Part shown: piece by piece, positions 42,842-51,055 of the stretch
How positions within the stretch are numbered: position 1 is the first letter of the stretch
How the letters are laid out: each line of letters opens with the position of its first letter
Assembly (NCBI GenBank): GCA_003223455.1
Contig: QHVE01000099.1
Coordinates: forward strand, 30,426-82,526
Source: Gemmatimonadota bacterium
Lineage (GTDB): Bacteria > Gemmatimonadota > Gemmatimonadetes > Gemmatimonadales > Gemmatimonadaceae
Reading direction: 5' to 3'
Length of the DNA stretch: 52,101 nucleotides
Notes under the pieces: model-generated
Database searches by the model: none
Told to the model about the DNA's origin: nothing
The model's input: the letters and a program-made list of their open reading frames with translations, nothing else
Translations under genes and position numbers: made by a program

Positions 42842-44239
42842 TTGACAGCACGCGAGTCTCCGGCGAGCATTGTCGGCGTGCCTGAATCCCGTGCGCTGTT
42901 ACCCGACCTGAAGGGCGCCACCGCGAAGGACGTCCTCGAGATCGCTCGGAAGAACAACGTCCGCTTTCTGCGGCTTCAGTTCACCGACATCCTGGGCGTC
43001 AACAAGAACGTCGAGATCCCCGCGTCGCAGTTCGAGAAGGCGCTCACCGGCGACATCATGTTCGACGGCTCGAGCATCGAGGGGTTCGTGCGGATCGAGG
43101 AGAGCGACATGCTGCTCGCGCCCGATCTGTCGACCTTTCGGATCTTCCCGTGGGGGGATCCGGACTCGCGCGTCGGCCGGCTCATCTGCGACATCAACAT
43201 GCCCGACGGCTCGCCCTTCCCAGGCGACCCACGCGGCGCGCTGAAGCGCGTGATCGCCGACGCCGCCGAGCTCGGCTTCACGATGAACGCGGGGATGGAA
43301 GCCGAGTTCTTCATGTTCAAGCGTGGGCCGAACGGGGAGTCGTCGACCGAGACGCACGATGTCGGTTCGTACTTCGATCTGGCGCCGGTGGACCTCGGCG
43401 AGGATGCGCGGCGCGCCATCGTGGACGACCTCGAGCAGATGGGCTTCGAGGTGGAGACGGCGCACCACGAGGTGGCGCACGGCCAGCACGAGATCGACTT
43501 CCGGTACGCCGACGCACTGACGACGGCGGACAACATCGCGACGTTCCGGTTCGTGGTGAAGGCGGTGGCGCAGCGATTCGGGCTCGCGGCGTCGTTCATG
43601 CCCAAGCCGATCTTCGGGCAGAACGGCAGCGGGATGCACACGCATCAGTCGCTGTTCCGCGGCAAGCAGAACGCCTTCTGGGACCCGAAGGCGCAGTGGG
43701 AGCTGAGCGAGACCGCGCTGCACTACATCGGCGGCCTGCTGCGCCACGCGCGCGGGTGCTGCGCGATCACCAACCCGCTCGTAAACTCGTACAAGCGGCT
43801 GGTGCCGGGCTACGAGGCCCCGGTGAACGTCGCGTGGAGCATGCGGAACCGGTCGCCGATGCTGCGCATTCCGGAGCGGCGTGGGCTGGGAACGCGCGTG
43901 GAGCATCGCGTGCCTGATCCGGCGGCCAACCCCTACTTGGCGCTCGCGGTGATGCTGGCGGCCGGGATCGATGGGGTGCGCACCAGTGCCGATTATCGGG
44001 AACCGGTGAACGAAAACATTTGGGAAATGAGCCACCGCGAGAAGCGGCGGCTGCGGATCGACGACCTGCCGCACGACCTGAACGAGGCGTGCAACGAGCT
44101 GGAGAAGAACGACGTCATCACCTCGGCGCTCGGCGACCACATCGCGCAGCACTTCCTGGCGGCGAAGCGGCAGGAATGGCGGGAGTACATCTCCCAGGTG
44201 TCGCAGTGGGAGCTGGACAACTACCTCGGGAAGTACTGA
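42842..44239 (+). CDS. glnA: Glutamine synthetase type I (GSI-alpha-like)
   Basis: A 465-residue enzyme that joins glutamate and ammonia to glutamine using ATP. Motifs: FTDILGVNKNVEIP, FDGSSIEGF, the MEAEFF metal ligands, the NGSGMHTHQS loop, KRLVPGYEAPVNVAWS and NRSPMLRIP. The adenylylation-site Tyr block of enterobacterial GSI is not seen, which fits the Bacillus/alpha type regulated by feedback rather than covalent change. TTG 42842 is chosen for a GGGGG tract 7 nt upstream; GTG 42878 is an in-frame alternative. A second, larger synthetase (GSIII) lies 4.4 kb downstream on the other strand. Confidence 0.95.
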   Translation: MTARESPASIVGVPESRALLPDLKGATAKDVLEIARKNNVRFLRLQFTDILGVNKNVEIPASQFEKALTGDIMFDGSSIEGFVRIEESDMLLAPDLSTFRIFPWGDPDSRVGRLICDINMPDGSPFPGDPRGALKRVIADAAELGFTMNAGMEAEFFMFKRGPNGESSTETHDVGSYFDLAPVDLGEDARRAIVDDLEQMGFEVETAHHEVAHGQHEIDFRYADALTTADNIATFRFVVKAVAQRFGLAASFMPKPIFGQNGSGMHTHQSLFRGKQNAFWDPKAQWELSETALHYIGGLLRHARGCCAITNPLVNSYKRLVPGYEAPVNVAWSMRNRSPMLRIPERRGLGTRVEHRVPDPAANPYLALAVMLAAGIDGVRTSADYREPVNENIWEMSHREKRRLRIDDLPHDLNEACNELEKNDVITSALGDHIAQHFLAAKRQEWREYISQVSQWELDNYLGKY

Positions 44240-46512: not shown

Positions 46513-47837
46513 TCAACGCCGTGACGTGCCACTCGGCGAAGGAGCGGGCGGAGGAGCGACCGGCGAGACGCCGGGCGGCGCGCTCACGCCGTTCGATCCC
46601 AGGTCGCCGAGCACGCCACCCTTCGCCACGAGCTGCGCCGCGAGCACGGTCTGGATGACGCTCGCGATCTGGTTCGTCGCGCCATTCGCTGCACCGCCAT
46701 TCTCGCCCCCGGAGATCGTGATCAAGCGCGCTTCGGCCAGCGCGTCGGCGATCTTGGGCGCGATGATCGGGAGCATCTCGATCTGCCGGTAGCGGAAGTA
46801 GCTCTCGCCGCCGGCGGCGATCGCCTGGTTCACCTTCTCGATCGACTCCGCCTGCGCAGCAGCGACGGTGCGGATGCGGATCGCCTCTGCTTCGGCCGCG
46901 GCCTGCGCTTCGATCGTGACACGCTCGGCGTCGGCGCGCGCCTGCGCGATCTGCGTCGCGTCCAGCTCGGCGACGCGCTGCACGCCCATCGCCTCCTGGC
47001 GCTTCGCTTCCGCCTGCGCGACGAGCGCGGCGTTGGCCGCGCGCGTCTGCTCCAGCTCGCGCTGCTTGTCGGAGATGTTGCGCTCGGCCTCGAGCTGCGC
47101 CTCCTTGGCGCGGCGGGCCTGCTGTGCGGAGACGATGTCGGCCGTGGCCTGTGCCTCGGCGGCGGACATGCGGCGCCGCGCGTCGGCCACCTCGCTCTGC
47201 ACGACCTTGATGTTGAGCGAGTTGAAGATCAGCCCGAGGTCGGTGAGCTCGCGCGAGCACGCCTTACGGATGATCACGGCGAGCGGATCGTCGTCGTCCT
47301 CGAGGGGATCGCCGGTCGGCGTCGTGACGAGGGCGCGCGGCGTGGCCGGCGCGACCGCCGTGCCGGACGACGTGCCCGGCGCGATCGCGGGAAGTGCGCG
47401 CGACGGACCCTTGGCGGAGAAGAGTTGGTGCTCGAGAGCAGATCGGTGATCGTGTTCATCTGATCGACCTCGGGCTTGGCGAAGAAGCGGTTCGCCGCCG
47501 TCTTGATCAGCTGATCGGTGTCACCCACGGAGACGATCGCGCTGGCGAGCACGCGTACCTTGATCGGCTGCGGCGTACCGTTCTCGTCGAGATCCGCCGT
47601 CTGATCGGTGATGTCGAGGTCGACGTTGATCACCTTGCTGGAGATCGTCGTGCCCGTCGTGAGGAGCGGGATCTCCTTGGACTTGCCGGGGCCGCGATAG
47701 ATGACGGTGCCGCCGGCCAGCCAGCTCACGAGGCGGATGGTGCCCGCCTCGACATTGCGAAGAAACGACGCGACGATCATCGGCAGCACGACGAGCACAC
47801 CGAAGACGACCGCGGCGATGAGAATGAGCGAGTTCAT
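46513..47837 (-). pseudogene. SPFH/flotillin family protein (YqiK-like), frameshifted near 47420-47430
   Basis: From ATG 47837 a membrane-inserted N-terminus (LIAAVVFGVLVVLPMIVASFL) and the SPFH domain (GTTISSKVINVDLDITDQTADL ... ANRFFAKPEVDQMNTITDLLSS) are in one frame. Near AGCACCAACTC the sense continuation moves to another frame, where LFSAKGPSRALPAIAPG, an acidic DDDD linker and IIRKACSRELTDLGLIFNSLNIKVVQSEV follow, then the flotillin coiled coil. Restoring one base (or one CCAA unit) rejoins the frames without other loss. Flotillins organise membrane microdomains. It lies 28 nt after the partner YqiJ-like gene. Confidence 0.85.
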
Positions 47838-47865: not shown

Positions 47866-48555
47866 TCACCGGTCGGGGATCCGAACGGTGCAGCGATGTC
47901 GTGCGGCGTCGATGCTGGAAACGCGGACCAGATCACCCGAGCGAACGCGCGCGCCGCGCGCGCGGTCATCCGCGGAAAGCGTAGCGAGCAACTGCACGAC
48001 CTGCCCGTCGACGTCGAGCGCGACGAGCCCCTGGCCGTTGGCGTCGAAGCCCATGACGGCGCGCGCGTCGTCTTCGATCGCGCTCTCGAGCGTGGCCGCT
48101 GGCGACGACTCGAAGCGGAAGAGCATGCGCCAGAGCGGGCCGACGAGCAGGCCTTCGAAGGCGGCCGCGGCGAGCACCGCGGCACCGGCGCGCCACGGCT
48201 CGCCGAGCGGCGACGCGAGCAGTCCACCCGCACCGAAGCCGACGAGCAGCGCGAACAGCACGCGCGGTGAGAGGAGCGAGAAGAACAGTTGCGCGGGTGC
48301 GGGATGCGCGGGTGCGCTCTGCGCAGCCGCGTGGTGCGCGGCTGCGCCGTGGGCGTGGCCCGCGTGCATCTCGGCGGTATGCGCCTGGCCGGCGTGGCCG
48401 GGGCCACCGTGGCCATTTCCGCTGTGCGCGTGACCGCCATGTCCGGCGTGTCCGCCGTGCCCATGTCCGACGTGTCCGACATGAGAGAGGCCGCCGATCG
48501 CCATCGCGGCGAGGCCAGTACCGCCCAGCGCGAGGCAAAACCCATAGACGTCCAT
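47866..48555 (-). CDS. YqiJ-like OB-fold membrane protein with His-rich loop
   Basis: A 229-residue membrane protein from ATG 48555. A first helix (CLALGGTGLAAMAIGG) is followed by a striking loop (~25-77) with 16 histidines in Gly/Ala context (repeated GHGGH, AGH and AHGAAAHH units). Two more hydrophobic segments (LFALLVGFGAGGLL and AAVLAAAAFEGLLVG) follow, then a C-terminal OB-like domain (~170-229, VRSGDLVRVSSIDAARHRCTV). This matches the NfeD/YqiJ type partners that pair with flotillins, and the flotillin gene is next downstream. The His loop is not part of the family core as I know it and suggests binding of Zn, Ni, Cu or Co. Confidence 0.75.
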   Translation of the reverse strand: MDVYGFCLALGGTGLAAMAIGGLSHVGHVGHGHGGHAGHGGHAHSGNGHGGPGHAGQAHTAEMHAGHAHGAAAHHAAAQSAPAHPAPAQLFFSLLSPRVLFALLVGFGAGGLLASPLGEPWRAGAAVLAAAAFEGLLVGPLWRMLFRFESSPAATLESAIEDDARAVMGFDANGQGLVALDVDGQVVQLLATLSADDRARGARVRSGDLVRVSSIDAARHRCTVRIPDR

Positions 48556-48685: not shown

Positions 48686-50911
48686 TCACACCGGGAAGAG
48701 GATCTCCCGGTACTTCGGCAGCGGCCAGCATTCGTCGGACACGCTGAGCTCGATCTGGTCGCTCACCTCGCGCACGGCGAGCATCGAATCCGCGCCGGTG
48801 CTGGTGAGGAACTTCGCCTGCTTGGCGAGGTCGTCGTGCAGCCCCTCGGCCTTCTCGATCGCCTCGCCGAGCGCCTTGCGACGCTCGCGCAGCGACTCGA
48901 TAAGCGCACCGAGCTCGTTGGCCGCCGCGACCTGCGGCACGATCTTGATGCCGGCCGTGACCGCGTTCGCCGCCGACGCCGCGAGCGTGGCCCCGTACTC
49001 GAACGCCGCCGGCAGCACGAGCGTGTCGACGATCTCCTTGAGTGTGTGCATCTCGATGAGGATGTCCTTCACGTAGCGCTCCATGCGGACATGGTAGCGC
49101 GACTCGAGCTCCTCCTTCGTGAAGATGCCCAGCTTGGTGAGCAGCGACTTCGCCTGACGCGTGTTGAGCTGCTCGAGCGCCTCCGGGGTGCGACGCAGGT
49201 TCGGCAGGCCGCGCTTCGCGGCATCCTTGACCCACTCCTCGGAGTAGTTGTTCCCCTCGAAGCGGATCGCGGCGGTCTCCTTGAACACCTCGCGCACCAC
49301 GGCGAGCACCGCATCCTCGACCGGCTTGTTCCGCTTGGTGGTTGCCTTCACCTGCTCGATCATCTCACCGAGCACTTCGGCGACGGCCGCGTTGAGCAGC
49401 ACGATCGGGAAGGCGATCGATGCCGACGAGCCGACGGCGCGGAACTCGAACTTGTTCCCCGTGAAGGCGAAGGGCGACGTACGGTTGCGGTCCGTATTGT
49501 CCTTCTCGACTTCGGGGAGCTTGGCGACGCCGAGCTTGATCATCGCCTGCGCCGCGTTCGCCGACGTCTTGCCCGCGGCGATCGACTCGATCATCGCCGT
49601 GAGGCTCTGGCCCATGAACACCGAGATGATGGCCGGCGGCGCCTCGTTCGCGCCGAGGCGATGCTCGTTGCCGCTCGACGCGATGCCCGCGCGCAGGAGG
49701 TTGGCGTGACGATGCACGCCCTTGAGCACTGCGGCGAGGAACACGAGCAAGCGGATGTTCTGGTGCGGGGTCTTGCCGGGCTTGAGCAGGTTGAAGCCGT
49801 CGAGCTCCGTGTTGTCCGCCGAGATCGAAAGCGACCAGTTGCAGTGCTTGCCGGACCCGTTGATACCGGCGAACGGCTTCTCGTTGAGGAGCGCCTGCAG
49901 GCCGTGGCGCAGCGCGACCTTCCGCAGCGTCGCCATGACCATCTGGTTGTGATCGACGGCGATGTCGGTCTCCTCGTACATCGGCGCCATCTCGAACTGC
50001 GACGGGGCGACCTCGTTGTGCCGCGTGACGATCGGCACGCCGAGCTTGTACAGCTCGTGCTCCGCCTCGGCGATGCACGCCTGGATGCGCTCCGGGATGC
50101 CGCCGAAGTAGTGGTCCTCGAGCTGCTGTCCGCGCGCCGGTGGAGCGCCGACGAGCGTGCGGCCCGCCATGACGAGGTCGGGACGCAGCGCGAAGTGGCC
50201 GCGATCGATGAGGAAGTACTCCTGCTCGGGTCCGAGCGTGGTGAAGACACGATGCACGCCCTTGTCGCCCAGAAGCTCGAGAAGCTCGATCGCCTTGGCG
50301 GAGAGTGCGTCCGAGCTGCGGAGCAGCGGCGTCATCTCGTCGAGCGCTTCACCGTGGTAGCCGATGAAGACCGACGGAATGCACAGCGTGCGCGTGCCGC
50401 CCGACTCGACGATGAACACCGGGCTGGCCGGGTTCCACGCCGTGTAGCCGCGCGCCTCCCATGTCGCACGGAGACCGCCCGAGGGGAAGCTCGACGCATC
50501 GGGCTCGCTCTGGATGAGCTGTGCACCGGTGAACGACTCGAGGGGCTGGCGATCGTCGTCGAAGTTGAGGAAGGCGTCGTGCTTCTCGGCGGTGAGGCCG
50601 GTCTGCGGCTGGAACCAGTGCGTGAAGTGCGTCACGCCGCGGCTGATCGCCCATTCCTTGATGACCTGCGCGACCGTGGGCGCGATCTCGAGATCGAGCT
50701 TCTTTCCGTGCCGGATGGCCGCAACGAGCTTGGCGTACACGTCCTTCGGCAGCTTGTCGCGCATCTGGCGCGCGCCGAAGGTGTTGATCCCGAAGTAGGC
50801 CGAGGTCGGGAGCTGACCGGGGCCGTCGCCGTTGTTGCTGGGTGACTTGGGCAGGCGCGAGACCATGTCACGCAACGAGGACTTACGCGAAGGGTGTGCG
50901 GGGGCGGTCAT
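48686..50911 (-). CDS. glnN: Glutamine synthetase type III
   Basis: A 741-residue enzyme, the normal size of GSIII, which is much longer than GSI. The core motifs are present: THWFQPQTGLTAEKHDAF, GPEQEYFLIDRGHF, RHNEVAPSQFEMAP, LNEKPFAGINGSGKHCNWS and DRNRTSPFAFTGNKFEFR. The C-terminal ~100 residues are the helical domain unique to GSIII. The ATG at 50911 gives a family-like N-terminus. The enzyme makes glutamine for nitrogen assimilation alongside GSI. An AT-rich upstream region (50912-51063) holds a plausible promoter and a dyad. Confidence 0.95.
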   Translation of the reverse strand: MTAPAHPSRKSSLRDMVSRLPKSPSNNGDGPGQLPTSAYFGINTFGARQMRDKLPKDVYAKLVAAIRHGKKLDLEIAPTVAQVIKEWAISRGVTHFTHWFQPQTGLTAEKHDAFLNFDDDRQPLESFTGAQLIQSEPDASSFPSGGLRATWEARGYTAWNPASPVFIVESGGTRTLCIPSVFIGYHGEALDEMTPLLRSSDALSAKAIELLELLGDKGVHRVFTTLGPEQEYFLIDRGHFALRPDLVMAGRTLVGAPPARGQQLEDHYFGGIPERIQACIAEAEHELYKLGVPIVTRHNEVAPSQFEMAPMYEETDIAVDHNQMVMATLRKVALRHGLQALLNEKPFAGINGSGKHCNWSLSISADNTELDGFNLLKPGKTPHQNIRLLVFLAAVLKGVHRHANLLRAGIASSGNEHRLGANEAPPAIISVFMGQSLTAMIESIAAGKTSANAAQAMIKLGVAKLPEVEKDNTDRNRTSPFAFTGNKFEFRAVGSSASIAFPIVLLNAAVAEVLGEMIEQVKATTKRNKPVEDAVLAVVREVFKETAAIRFEGNNYSEEWVKDAAKRGLPNLRRTPEALEQLNTRQAKSLLTKLGIFTKEELESRYHVRMERYVKDILIEMHTLKEIVDTLVLPAAFEYGATLAASAANAVTAGIKIVPQVAAANELGALIESLRERRKALGEAIEKAEGLHDDLAKQAKFLTSTGADSMLAVREVSDQIELSVSDECWPLPKYREILFPV

Positions 50912-50941
50912 GGGAGCGGGCTGAGGAATGGACGGCTGGAC

Positions 50942-51055
50942 TGCACAAATTGCACGAAGTGGTGACCAATGTAGCCATAATTGGTCTAACAAAGCAAGGA
51001 TTTACGCTGAAAACTGCAGGATGAGCATCAGTTTCAGTCGAAATTGCACAAAATG
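50942..51055 (-). promoter_or_regulatory. Putative glnN promoter and dyad
   Basis: The region is unusually AT-rich for this DNA. On the minus strand TTGCTT and TACATT are separated by about 18 nt and resemble -35/-10 boxes. An inverted repeat GACCAAT-N9-ATTGGTC (50964-50986) overlaps them. The octamer TGCACAAA occurs near both ends (50943 and 51045). A nitrogen-responsive regulator could bind here; that is inference. Confidence 0.45.

What the first reader, a model, noticed from the sequence alone, without database searches (positions are those of the whole stretch)
47866..48555. His-rich loop in a flotillin-partner membrane protein
Sixteen His in about 55 residues, in GHGGH-type repeats, are inserted after the first helix of a YqiJ/NfeD-like protein. 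This suggests a metal-buffering or metal-sensing function coupled to a flotillin microdomain, which I do not know from the described family.
Basis: partly seen in the sequence, partly recalled or inferred. Interest (0 to 1): 0.55.

Follow-up and report, generated by a model that had tools for sequence, protein, structure and literature searches.

The report
Histidine-rich loop in flotillin-partner proteins
A bacterial membrane protein made together with a flotillin-like protein, of a family that organises patches of membrane, carries a floppy loop packed with histidine that has been kept in several bacterial phyla, which suggests that these patches may bind metal ions or respond to charge; the function has not been tested.

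Summary
The 229-aa ORF (47866-48555, minus) has 16 His in residues 25-79. AlphaFold2 predicts helix 1, a disordered stretch, two more helices and an OB fold. The loop is no local oddity: among 77 distinct family proteins in the fetched loci (the window's included), 75 have at least 4 loop His; loops are 21% His against 0.7% elsewhere. In 76 of 77 a flotillin-like gene follows directly; the last contig ends. In 60 related genomes both genes occur in the same 22; one more has only a flotillin fragment at a contig edge. NfeD-domain proteins of relatives (15 of 17 readable) lack the loop. No Pfam, NCBIfam or PHROG model matches the window protein, and no held paper joins NfeD with 'histidine-rich'. 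It works like an NfeD partner of a flotillin, but meets neither the Pfam YqiJ nor the NfeD model. Most likely the loop is cytoplasmic and binds divalent metal, multiplied by flotillin assembly. Against this: no metal gene is regularly beside it, and two Armatimonadota tandem second copies have Arg/Lys in place of His, favouring a polycation reading. All functional steps are inferred.

The parts
47866..48555 (-). CDS, 229 aa: three-helix membrane protein with OB-fold C-terminus (NfeD-like flotillin partner)
   Evidence: ORF and translation; found in 22 of 60 related genomes, its own included; AF2 model mean pLDDT 77.9, pTM 0.52
48475..48549 (-). residues 3-27, first transmembrane helix (predicted)
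   Evidence: AF2 helix H3-27; aligned across A2
48286..48486 (-). residues 24-90, His-rich loop (17 His in 67 residues), mostly disordered
   Evidence: pLDDT under 50 over 37-46 and 48-80; at least 4 His kept in 75 of 77 family proteins
48118..48267 (-). residues 97-146, helices 2 and 3 (predicted), starting within the conserved Ser-Pro-Arg
   Evidence: AF2 H97-113 and H121-146; S96 and P97 invariant, R98 nearly invariant in A2
47881..48069 (-). residues 163-225, OB-fold domain (predicted)
   Evidence: AF2 strands; VIA-align: 3wwv Z 10.1, 3cp0 Z 9.8, YuaF 2k14 Z 8.2, QmcA-YbbJ 8z5g Z 7.2 over 113 residues; IF-1 folds score about as well
46513..47837 (-). flotillin-like gene directly downstream; its reading frame is broken here (pieces 47274-47837 and 46513-47277)
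   Evidence: the two pieces match the intact flotillin-like protein of L030 at E 1.8e-76 and 7.1e-133; NCBIfam FloT model, weak (E 0.044 and 7.9e-5)

Best explanation
The gene pair is a divergent flotillin with its NfeD-type partner. SHOWN by computation: the partner has three predicted helices, a disordered His-rich loop between helices 1 and 2, and a predicted OB domain; the loop composition is kept while its length and sequence drift; and the two genes occur together. INFERRED: the N-terminus is outside and the His loop is in the cytoplasm, on the same side as the OB domain. The OB domain clasps the flotillin coiled coil, as reported for NfeD and FloA. Many copies assemble with one flotillin oligomer, so their loops form a dense histidine mesh at the inner membrane face that loosely and reversibly binds divalent metal (Zn, Ni, Co or Cu). 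Metal occupancy then buffers metal at the membrane or tunes assembly of the microdomain, possibly together with the acidic cluster that the partner flotillins carry.
For: Loop His 935 of 4408 residues (21.2%) against 89 of 12376 (0.7%) in the rest of 77 distinct proteins; HxH 210 and HxxH 234 against 151 and 117 in shuffles, while adjacent HH is depleted, 87 against 198. 75 of 77 have at least 4 loop His. 29 of the 77 are represented by loci from searches with a profile that leaves the loop out. His is kept although codons change: 1084 of 2667 aligned His pairs use different codons. A flotillin-like gene follows in 76 of 77, the other contig ends. The same 22 of 60 genomes hold both genes. Cytoplasmic side: K/R near the loop's end and after helix 3, 0 K/R and 0.70 D/E per protein at the N-terminus, and two tandem paralogs with Arg/Lys-rich loops. 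NfeD binds the FloA coiled coil through its OB domain (passages of PMC11222466). All 27 aligned partner flotillins (of 35 listed) carry 5-6 acidic residues in the 8 before a conserved motif.
Against: No neighbour family other than the flotillin-like gene occurs in more than 5 of 38 loci (14 largest clusters printed, flanks up to 6 kb); three of the smaller clusters were identified and none is a classical metal transporter. No Rfam family at gathering score lies near. Loops have almost no Cys (0.0% after rounding) and few Asp/Glu (3.9%), so high-affinity sites are unlikely. Two tandem second copies (G544, G609) have 1 and 0 His but 10 and 8 Arg/Lys in the same loop, so charge rather than metal may be what matters. 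Metal binding itself was not tested. The His spacing also fits slippage of GHGGHA-type repeats. The family profile was seeded with His-loop members.
Confidence: 0.45

Rival explanations
1. The loop is a pH-tunable polycation rather than a metal site: protonated His (or Arg/Lys in the paralogs) touches anionic lipid head groups or the acidic EDDDD-type cluster of the flotillin, and so holds the microdomain together.
For: Two tandem second copies replace His by Arg/Lys; acidic cluster in 27 of 27 aligned partner flotillins; loops are poor in Asp/Glu.
Against: His is preferred over Arg/Lys in the loops overall, 935 against 164; at cytoplasmic pH His is mostly neutral (general knowledge), so Arg/Lys would serve better; spacing is enriched at i+2 and i+3.
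Confidence: 0.27
2. The loop is a flexible low-complexity spacer made by repeat slippage in G+C-rich DNA, with no specific role for His.
For: Gly+Ala+His make up 62% of the loops; weak tandem DNA repeats lie in the loop region; background ORFs can be His-rich.
Against: His kept in records titled Gemmatimonadetes, Armatimonadota, Verrucomicrobia and Deinococcus with changed codons; observed His exceeds all shuffles; 15 of 15 readable NfeD-domain proteins of relatives have no such loop.
Confidence: 0.15
3. The loop drives assembly or condensation of the microdomain through weak His contacts (with aromatic residues, nucleic acid or other His), with metal only incidental.
For: Disordered Gly/His/Ala-rich composition; partner is an assembly-forming scaffold family (passages of PMC11222466).
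Against: Few aromatic residues in the loops (Y 0.2%, F 1.1%, W 1.3%); no direct evidence.
Confidence: 0.08

Closest known systems
NfeD-FloA pair of Staphylococcus aureus (passages of PMC11222466)
   Same: two-gene operon with the NfeD-type gene first; N-terminal membrane region; cytosolic OB-like domain; flotillin partner
   Different: the family here does not reach the PF01957 model's cut-off and adds a His-rich loop; 'histidine' occurs 0 times in that paper's main text
QmcA-YbbJ (PDB 8z5g; described in a passage of PMC13086221)
   Same: helices 2-3 plus OB domain align over 113 residues (Z 7.2, rmsd 6.0); SPFH partner
   Different: low Z; the alignment starts at residue 100, so it does not cover the His loop
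YqiJ-YqiK of Escherichia coli (fetched) and three Verrucomicrobiota YqiJ_OB proteins
   Same: operon order, membrane helices then soluble domain, a loop after helix 1; E. coli YqiJ has 10 His in 209 residues
   Different: profile comparison gives about 1% probability; the three Verrucomicrobiota YqiJ loops are acidic, not His-rich
PacL1 of Mycobacterium tuberculosis (passages of PMC9374683)
   Same: membrane scaffold with a cytoplasmic metal-binding His motif that binds zinc
   Different: no relationship is claimed; its foci do not need flotillin; it works with the P-ATPase CtpC, and no P-ATPase was identified as a recurrent neighbour here
His-rich loops of ZIP and ZnT zinc transporters (search listing only; otherwise recalled)
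   Same: His-rich loop in a membrane protein
   Different: those are transporters; this protein has three predicted helices and an OB domain

Membership tests
NfeD family (PF01957 and short NfeD proteins) | C-terminal OB-fold domain | tested here: met
   AF2 OB domain; 3wwv Z 10.1 over 64 residues, 3cp0 Z 9.8 over 63, 2k14 Z 8.2, 2exd Z 7.6; IF-1 and cold-shock OB folds score about 7-9, so the fold alone does not single out NfeD. By sequence, eIF-1a is the commonest weak match, 9 of 35
NfeD family (PF01957 and short NfeD proteins) | match to the PF01957 model at its cut-off | tested here: not met
   window protein 0 families; 1 of 35 C-terminal sequences at E 0.036; three remote Armatimonadota relatives (A3 hits at E 5.9e-5 to 4.3e-4) match PF01957 at E 4e-4 to 8.6e-3, below the cut-off
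NfeD family (PF01957 and short NfeD proteins) | N-terminal hydrophobic stretches before the soluble beta domain | tested here: met
   helices 3-27, 97-113, 121-146; three stretches named in a passage of PMC2636767; predicted only
NfeD family (PF01957 and short NfeD proteins) | operon with an SPFH/flotillin gene | tested here: met
   flotillin-like gene downstream in 76 of 77 distinct members, the remaining contig ends 80 nt after the gene; co-transcription not tested
NfeD family (PF01957 and short NfeD proteins) | OB domain in the cytosol, binding the flotillin coiled coil | not testable with these tools
   needs topology mapping and interaction assays
YqiJ family (PF07290) | match to the YqiJ_OB model | tested here: not met
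   0 of 60 related genomes, while Escherichia coli rings as control; profile comparison with 4 YqiJ proteins about 1% probability
Flotillin / SPFH (downstream gene) | SPFH (Band_7) domain by model | tested here: inconclusive
   1 of 27 aligned partners matches PF01145 (E 1.1e-5); solved flotillin-2 at E 0.038; profile comparison with YqiK 68% over 60 C-terminal columns only
Flotillin / SPFH (downstream gene) | N-terminal membrane segment plus long coiled coil | tested here: met
   AF2 H2-28 and H199-355, with pLDDT 86-93 over 231-340; the whole model is weak (mean 63); NCBIfam FloT E 1.2e-9 over the coil region
NCBIfam FloT equivalog NF058507 (downstream gene) | score at or above 700 bits | tested here: not met
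   37.8 bits for the L030 protein

The most novel reading that the evidence does not exclude
A separate class of bacterial membrane microdomain in which a flotillin ring is lined with several hundred histidines. If it had 26 pairs like QmcA-YbbJ, 17 loop His each would give about 440. Metal bridges between the His loops of the partner and the acidic cluster of the flotillin would control assembly, making the microdomain a metal reservoir or sensor; lineages with Arg/Lys-rich second copies would have a permanently closed version.
Probability: 0.18. Interest if true: 0.75.

Novelty: new variant of a known kind. Interest (0 to 1): 0.5.

Why it matters
What bacterial flotillin microdomains do is an open question. 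A 2024 paper began by calling the function of the NfeD partner unknown and then reported that it stabilises flotillin oligomers (passages). A conserved, chemically specific loop in the partner gives a concrete new handle, metal or pH, testable with a short peptide and with loop swaps. Neither gene of the pair is caught reliably by the family models searched, so the system is probably under-annotated in several phyla.

Tried and rejected
Membership in YqiJ (PF07290) was tested and rejected. A chance origin was tested and rejected by shuffles. A recurrent third gene was sought in 38 loci (L029-L065 and the window's end, the 14 largest clusters printed). The three largest clusters (37, 32 and 20 loci) have representatives that overlap the flotillin-like gene in other frames. 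The next, in 5 loci, include the glutamine synthetase III region. Of the clusters in 3-4 loci, three were identified by one representative each: an MHYT-domain hybrid histidine kinase (4 loci), an MFS protein (4 loci) and a DUF4142 protein (3 loci); the others were not identified. No Rfam family at gathering score and no sigma-70-type promoter was found near the operon. NCBIfam scans of the 35 proteins of A2 gave five families in one member each, among them the cobalt/nickel exporter DmeF at E 0.034; I take these as chance or composition. The AF2 model of the flotillin was too weak for a fold search (mean pLDDT 63, pTM 0.27), so none was run. Plasmid searches gave many Enterobacteriaceae YqiJ (not followed) and two Deinococcus relatives with His-containing loops and a downstream gene that weakly matches FloT; these two are not in the 77. 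Three remote Armatimonadota hits (L126-L128) were left out of the 77 by the E-value limit 1e-10; they have 5-13 His in the up to 130 residues before the conserved part, and no flotillin-like gene was seen in their flanks. Of the 44 genomes hit, 30 gave loci there; 5 of the other 14 had been fetched, and 9 were not read by handle. In one search three rows (L031, L015, L061) were mis-parsed and three loop lengths (L064, L102, L014) were wrong; one search replaces it. In one search the loop is taken as everything between a fixed 22-residue first helix and the conserved part, so its ends are approximate, and L016 is cut off at a contig start.

Searches for prior reports: 'flotillin + NfeD + histidine-rich' 0 papers; 'NfeD + histidine-rich' 0 papers; 'flotillin + histidine-rich + bacterial + membrane microdomain' 4 papers, of which only PMC9374683 looked related from the listing; 'Gemmatimonadetes + flotillin' 1 unrelated paper. 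Only the held open-licence library was searched.

Full report
OBSERVATION. The ORF at window 48555..47866 (minus) encodes 229 aa. Residues 25-79 contain 16 His in 55; residues 24-90 contain 17 in 67. Shuffling the loop DNA gives on average 2.4 His (mononucleotide, 0 of 10000 shuffles reach 17) or 5.9 His (dinucleotide, 0 of 5000). Other ORFs of these G+C-rich loci, many of them spurious, are sometimes His-rich: of 2565, one has 17 and four have 13-14 His per 55 residues. The count alone is therefore not decisive; conservation is.

CONSERVATION. In 60 related genomes, the window's own included, 22 have the protein. A scan of the 84,980-species genome collection gave 37 loci, mostly titled Gemmatimonadetes; the others are L031 (Chthoniobacterales), L061 (PVC group), L062 and L064 (Verrucomicrobia), L052 (Abditibacteriaceae) and L063 (Armatimonadota). 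To reduce selection for the loop, I built a profile of the C-terminal part only (A3); its 35 rows are themselves His-loop members. It hit 44 of 298 genomes of the window's phylum, 1 of 113 of the class of G060, the genome of L062, and 21 of 101 of the phylum of G062, the genome of L063. Among all fetched loci there are 77 distinct proteins at E 1e-10 or better, the window's included; 29 are represented by loci from the loop-blind searches. Their loops hold 935 His in 4408 residues (21.2%), the rest 89 in 12376 (0.7%); the median is 12 His and 55 residues. 75 of 77 have at least 4 His and 72 at least 6. Loops vary from 23 to 108 residues, the shortest or one of the shortest being cut off by a contig start, and do not align residue by residue. 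Over 336 protein pairs, aligned His pairs use different codons in 1084 of 2667 cases; that alignment rewards identical residues, so the figure shows codon change, not an unbiased rate. Two Deinococcus plasmid relatives also have His-containing loops.

EXCEPTIONS. In G544 and G609 (phylum of G062) two copies lie in tandem before the flotillin-like gene. The first copy has 6 and 5 loop His; the second has 1 and 0 His but 10 and 8 Arg/Lys. The lowest His count otherwise is 4 (L090).

SPECIFICITY CONTROL. PF01957 NfeD proteins were found in 17 of 41 related genomes, 15 of them over the model's cut-off. 15 of the 17 loci were read (two lie at contig edges); none has a comparable loop, with 0-5 His in up to 110 residues before the domain.

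ANATOMY. AF2 with 35 sequences (mean pLDDT 77.9, pTM 0.52) gives helix 3-27, pLDDT below 50 over 37-46 and 48-80, helices 97-113 and 121-146, and a beta domain 163-225. Foldseek's best hits are IF-1 (E 7.8e-4) with YuaF (2k14) at rank 4 (E 2.6e-3). VIA-align ranks NfeD-type domains first: 3wwv Z 10.1 (64 residues, rmsd 2.4) and 3cp0 Z 9.8 (63, 1.9); IF-1 follows at Z 9.2, and rows within 1 of each other are tied. YuaF has Z 8.2 and QmcA-YbbJ (8z5g) Z 7.2 over 113 residues. Topology: the first five residues have 0 K/R and 0.70 D/E per protein, the stretch before helix 2 has 0.84 K/R, the short loop between helices 2 and 3 has 0.70 K/R and 0.48 D/E, and the stretch after helix 3 has 1.22 K/R. 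With the OB domain inside, as reported for NfeD, three helices put the His loop inside too; the Arg/Lys-rich paralog loops fit this. This is inference.

PARTNER. A flotillin-like ORF follows on the same strand in 76 of 77 distinct members; the remaining contig ends 80 nt later. In 60 related genomes the flotillin profile hits 23: the 22 with the His-loop gene plus G029, where only a fragment at a contig edge is seen. Fisher's test gives P 1.6e-15, without correction for shared ancestry. The partner is itself divergent: Band_7 matches 1 of 27, and NCBIfam FloT matches only weakly. The 27 aligned partners (of 35 listed) all have a variable insert of 26-46 residues that ends in 5-6 acidic residues among 8. 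In the window the flotillin frame is broken near 47,400; intact copies exist in relatives. It could be an assembly error or a real loss; I cannot tell.

NEIGHBOURS. Apart from ORFs that overlap the flotillin-like gene, no family occurs in more than 5 of 38 loci (14 largest clusters printed, unequal flanks of up to 6 kb). One cluster in 4 loci is an MHYT-domain hybrid histidine kinase (one representative scanned); that MHYT has been proposed to bind copper is recalled, not checked here.

MECHANISM. Shown: a conserved His-rich disordered loop in a predicted OB-fold membrane protein encoded beside a flotillin-like protein wherever the contig allows a look. Inferred: the loop is cytoplasmic, is multiplied by assembly, and binds divalent metal weakly. 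HxH and HxxH spacings are enriched over shuffles (210 against 151, 234 against 117), as expected for metal chelation but also for simple repeats. Against: no regular metal-gene neighbour, almost no Cys, and the Arg/Lys copies. The polycation rival is therefore kept at 0.27.

COMPARISON. It works like an NfeD-flotillin pair (passages of PMC11222466, PMC13086221 and PMC2636767) but does not meet the Pfam models of NfeD and YqiJ. PacL1 (passages of PMC9374683) shows that a cytoplasmic His motif on a membrane scaffold can bind zinc, though independently of flotillin. No held paper contains both NfeD and 'histidine-rich'.

CHANGES AFTER CHECKING.

Noticed in passing
window 46513-47837: The flotillin-like gene is split into two frames near 47,400; intact copies exist in related genomes. 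The G009 copy also shows one internal stop.
   Followed up: partly
L119/L129 (G544) and L120/L130 (G609): Tandem duplicates of the partner gene: one loop with His and Asp, one Arg/Lys/Gly-rich loop, both before the same flotillin-like gene.
   Followed up: partly
A5 flotillin-like proteins, for example L030:6432-7847: A variable insert of 26-46 residues ends in an EDDDD-type acidic cluster in 27 of 27 aligned partners; its role is unknown.
   Followed up: partly
L126, L127, L128: Remote Armatimonadota relatives with weak NfeD-domain matches also have His-containing stretches (5-13 His) before the conserved part, without a flotillin-like gene seen in the flanks held.
   Followed up: partly
L047:9444-12341 and three other loci: An MHYT-domain hybrid histidine kinase lies within about 6 kb of the pair in 4 of 38 loci.
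   Followed up: partly
window 42842-44239 and 48686-50992: Two glutamine-synthetase-like genes lie within about 9 kb; the type III gene is just upstream of the pair on the same strand, and that region recurs in 5 loci.
   Followed up: no
L031: A contig titled Chthoniobacterales carries a protein 58% identical to the window's in the alignment, as close as several Gemmatimonadetes members; possible mis-binning.
   Followed up: no
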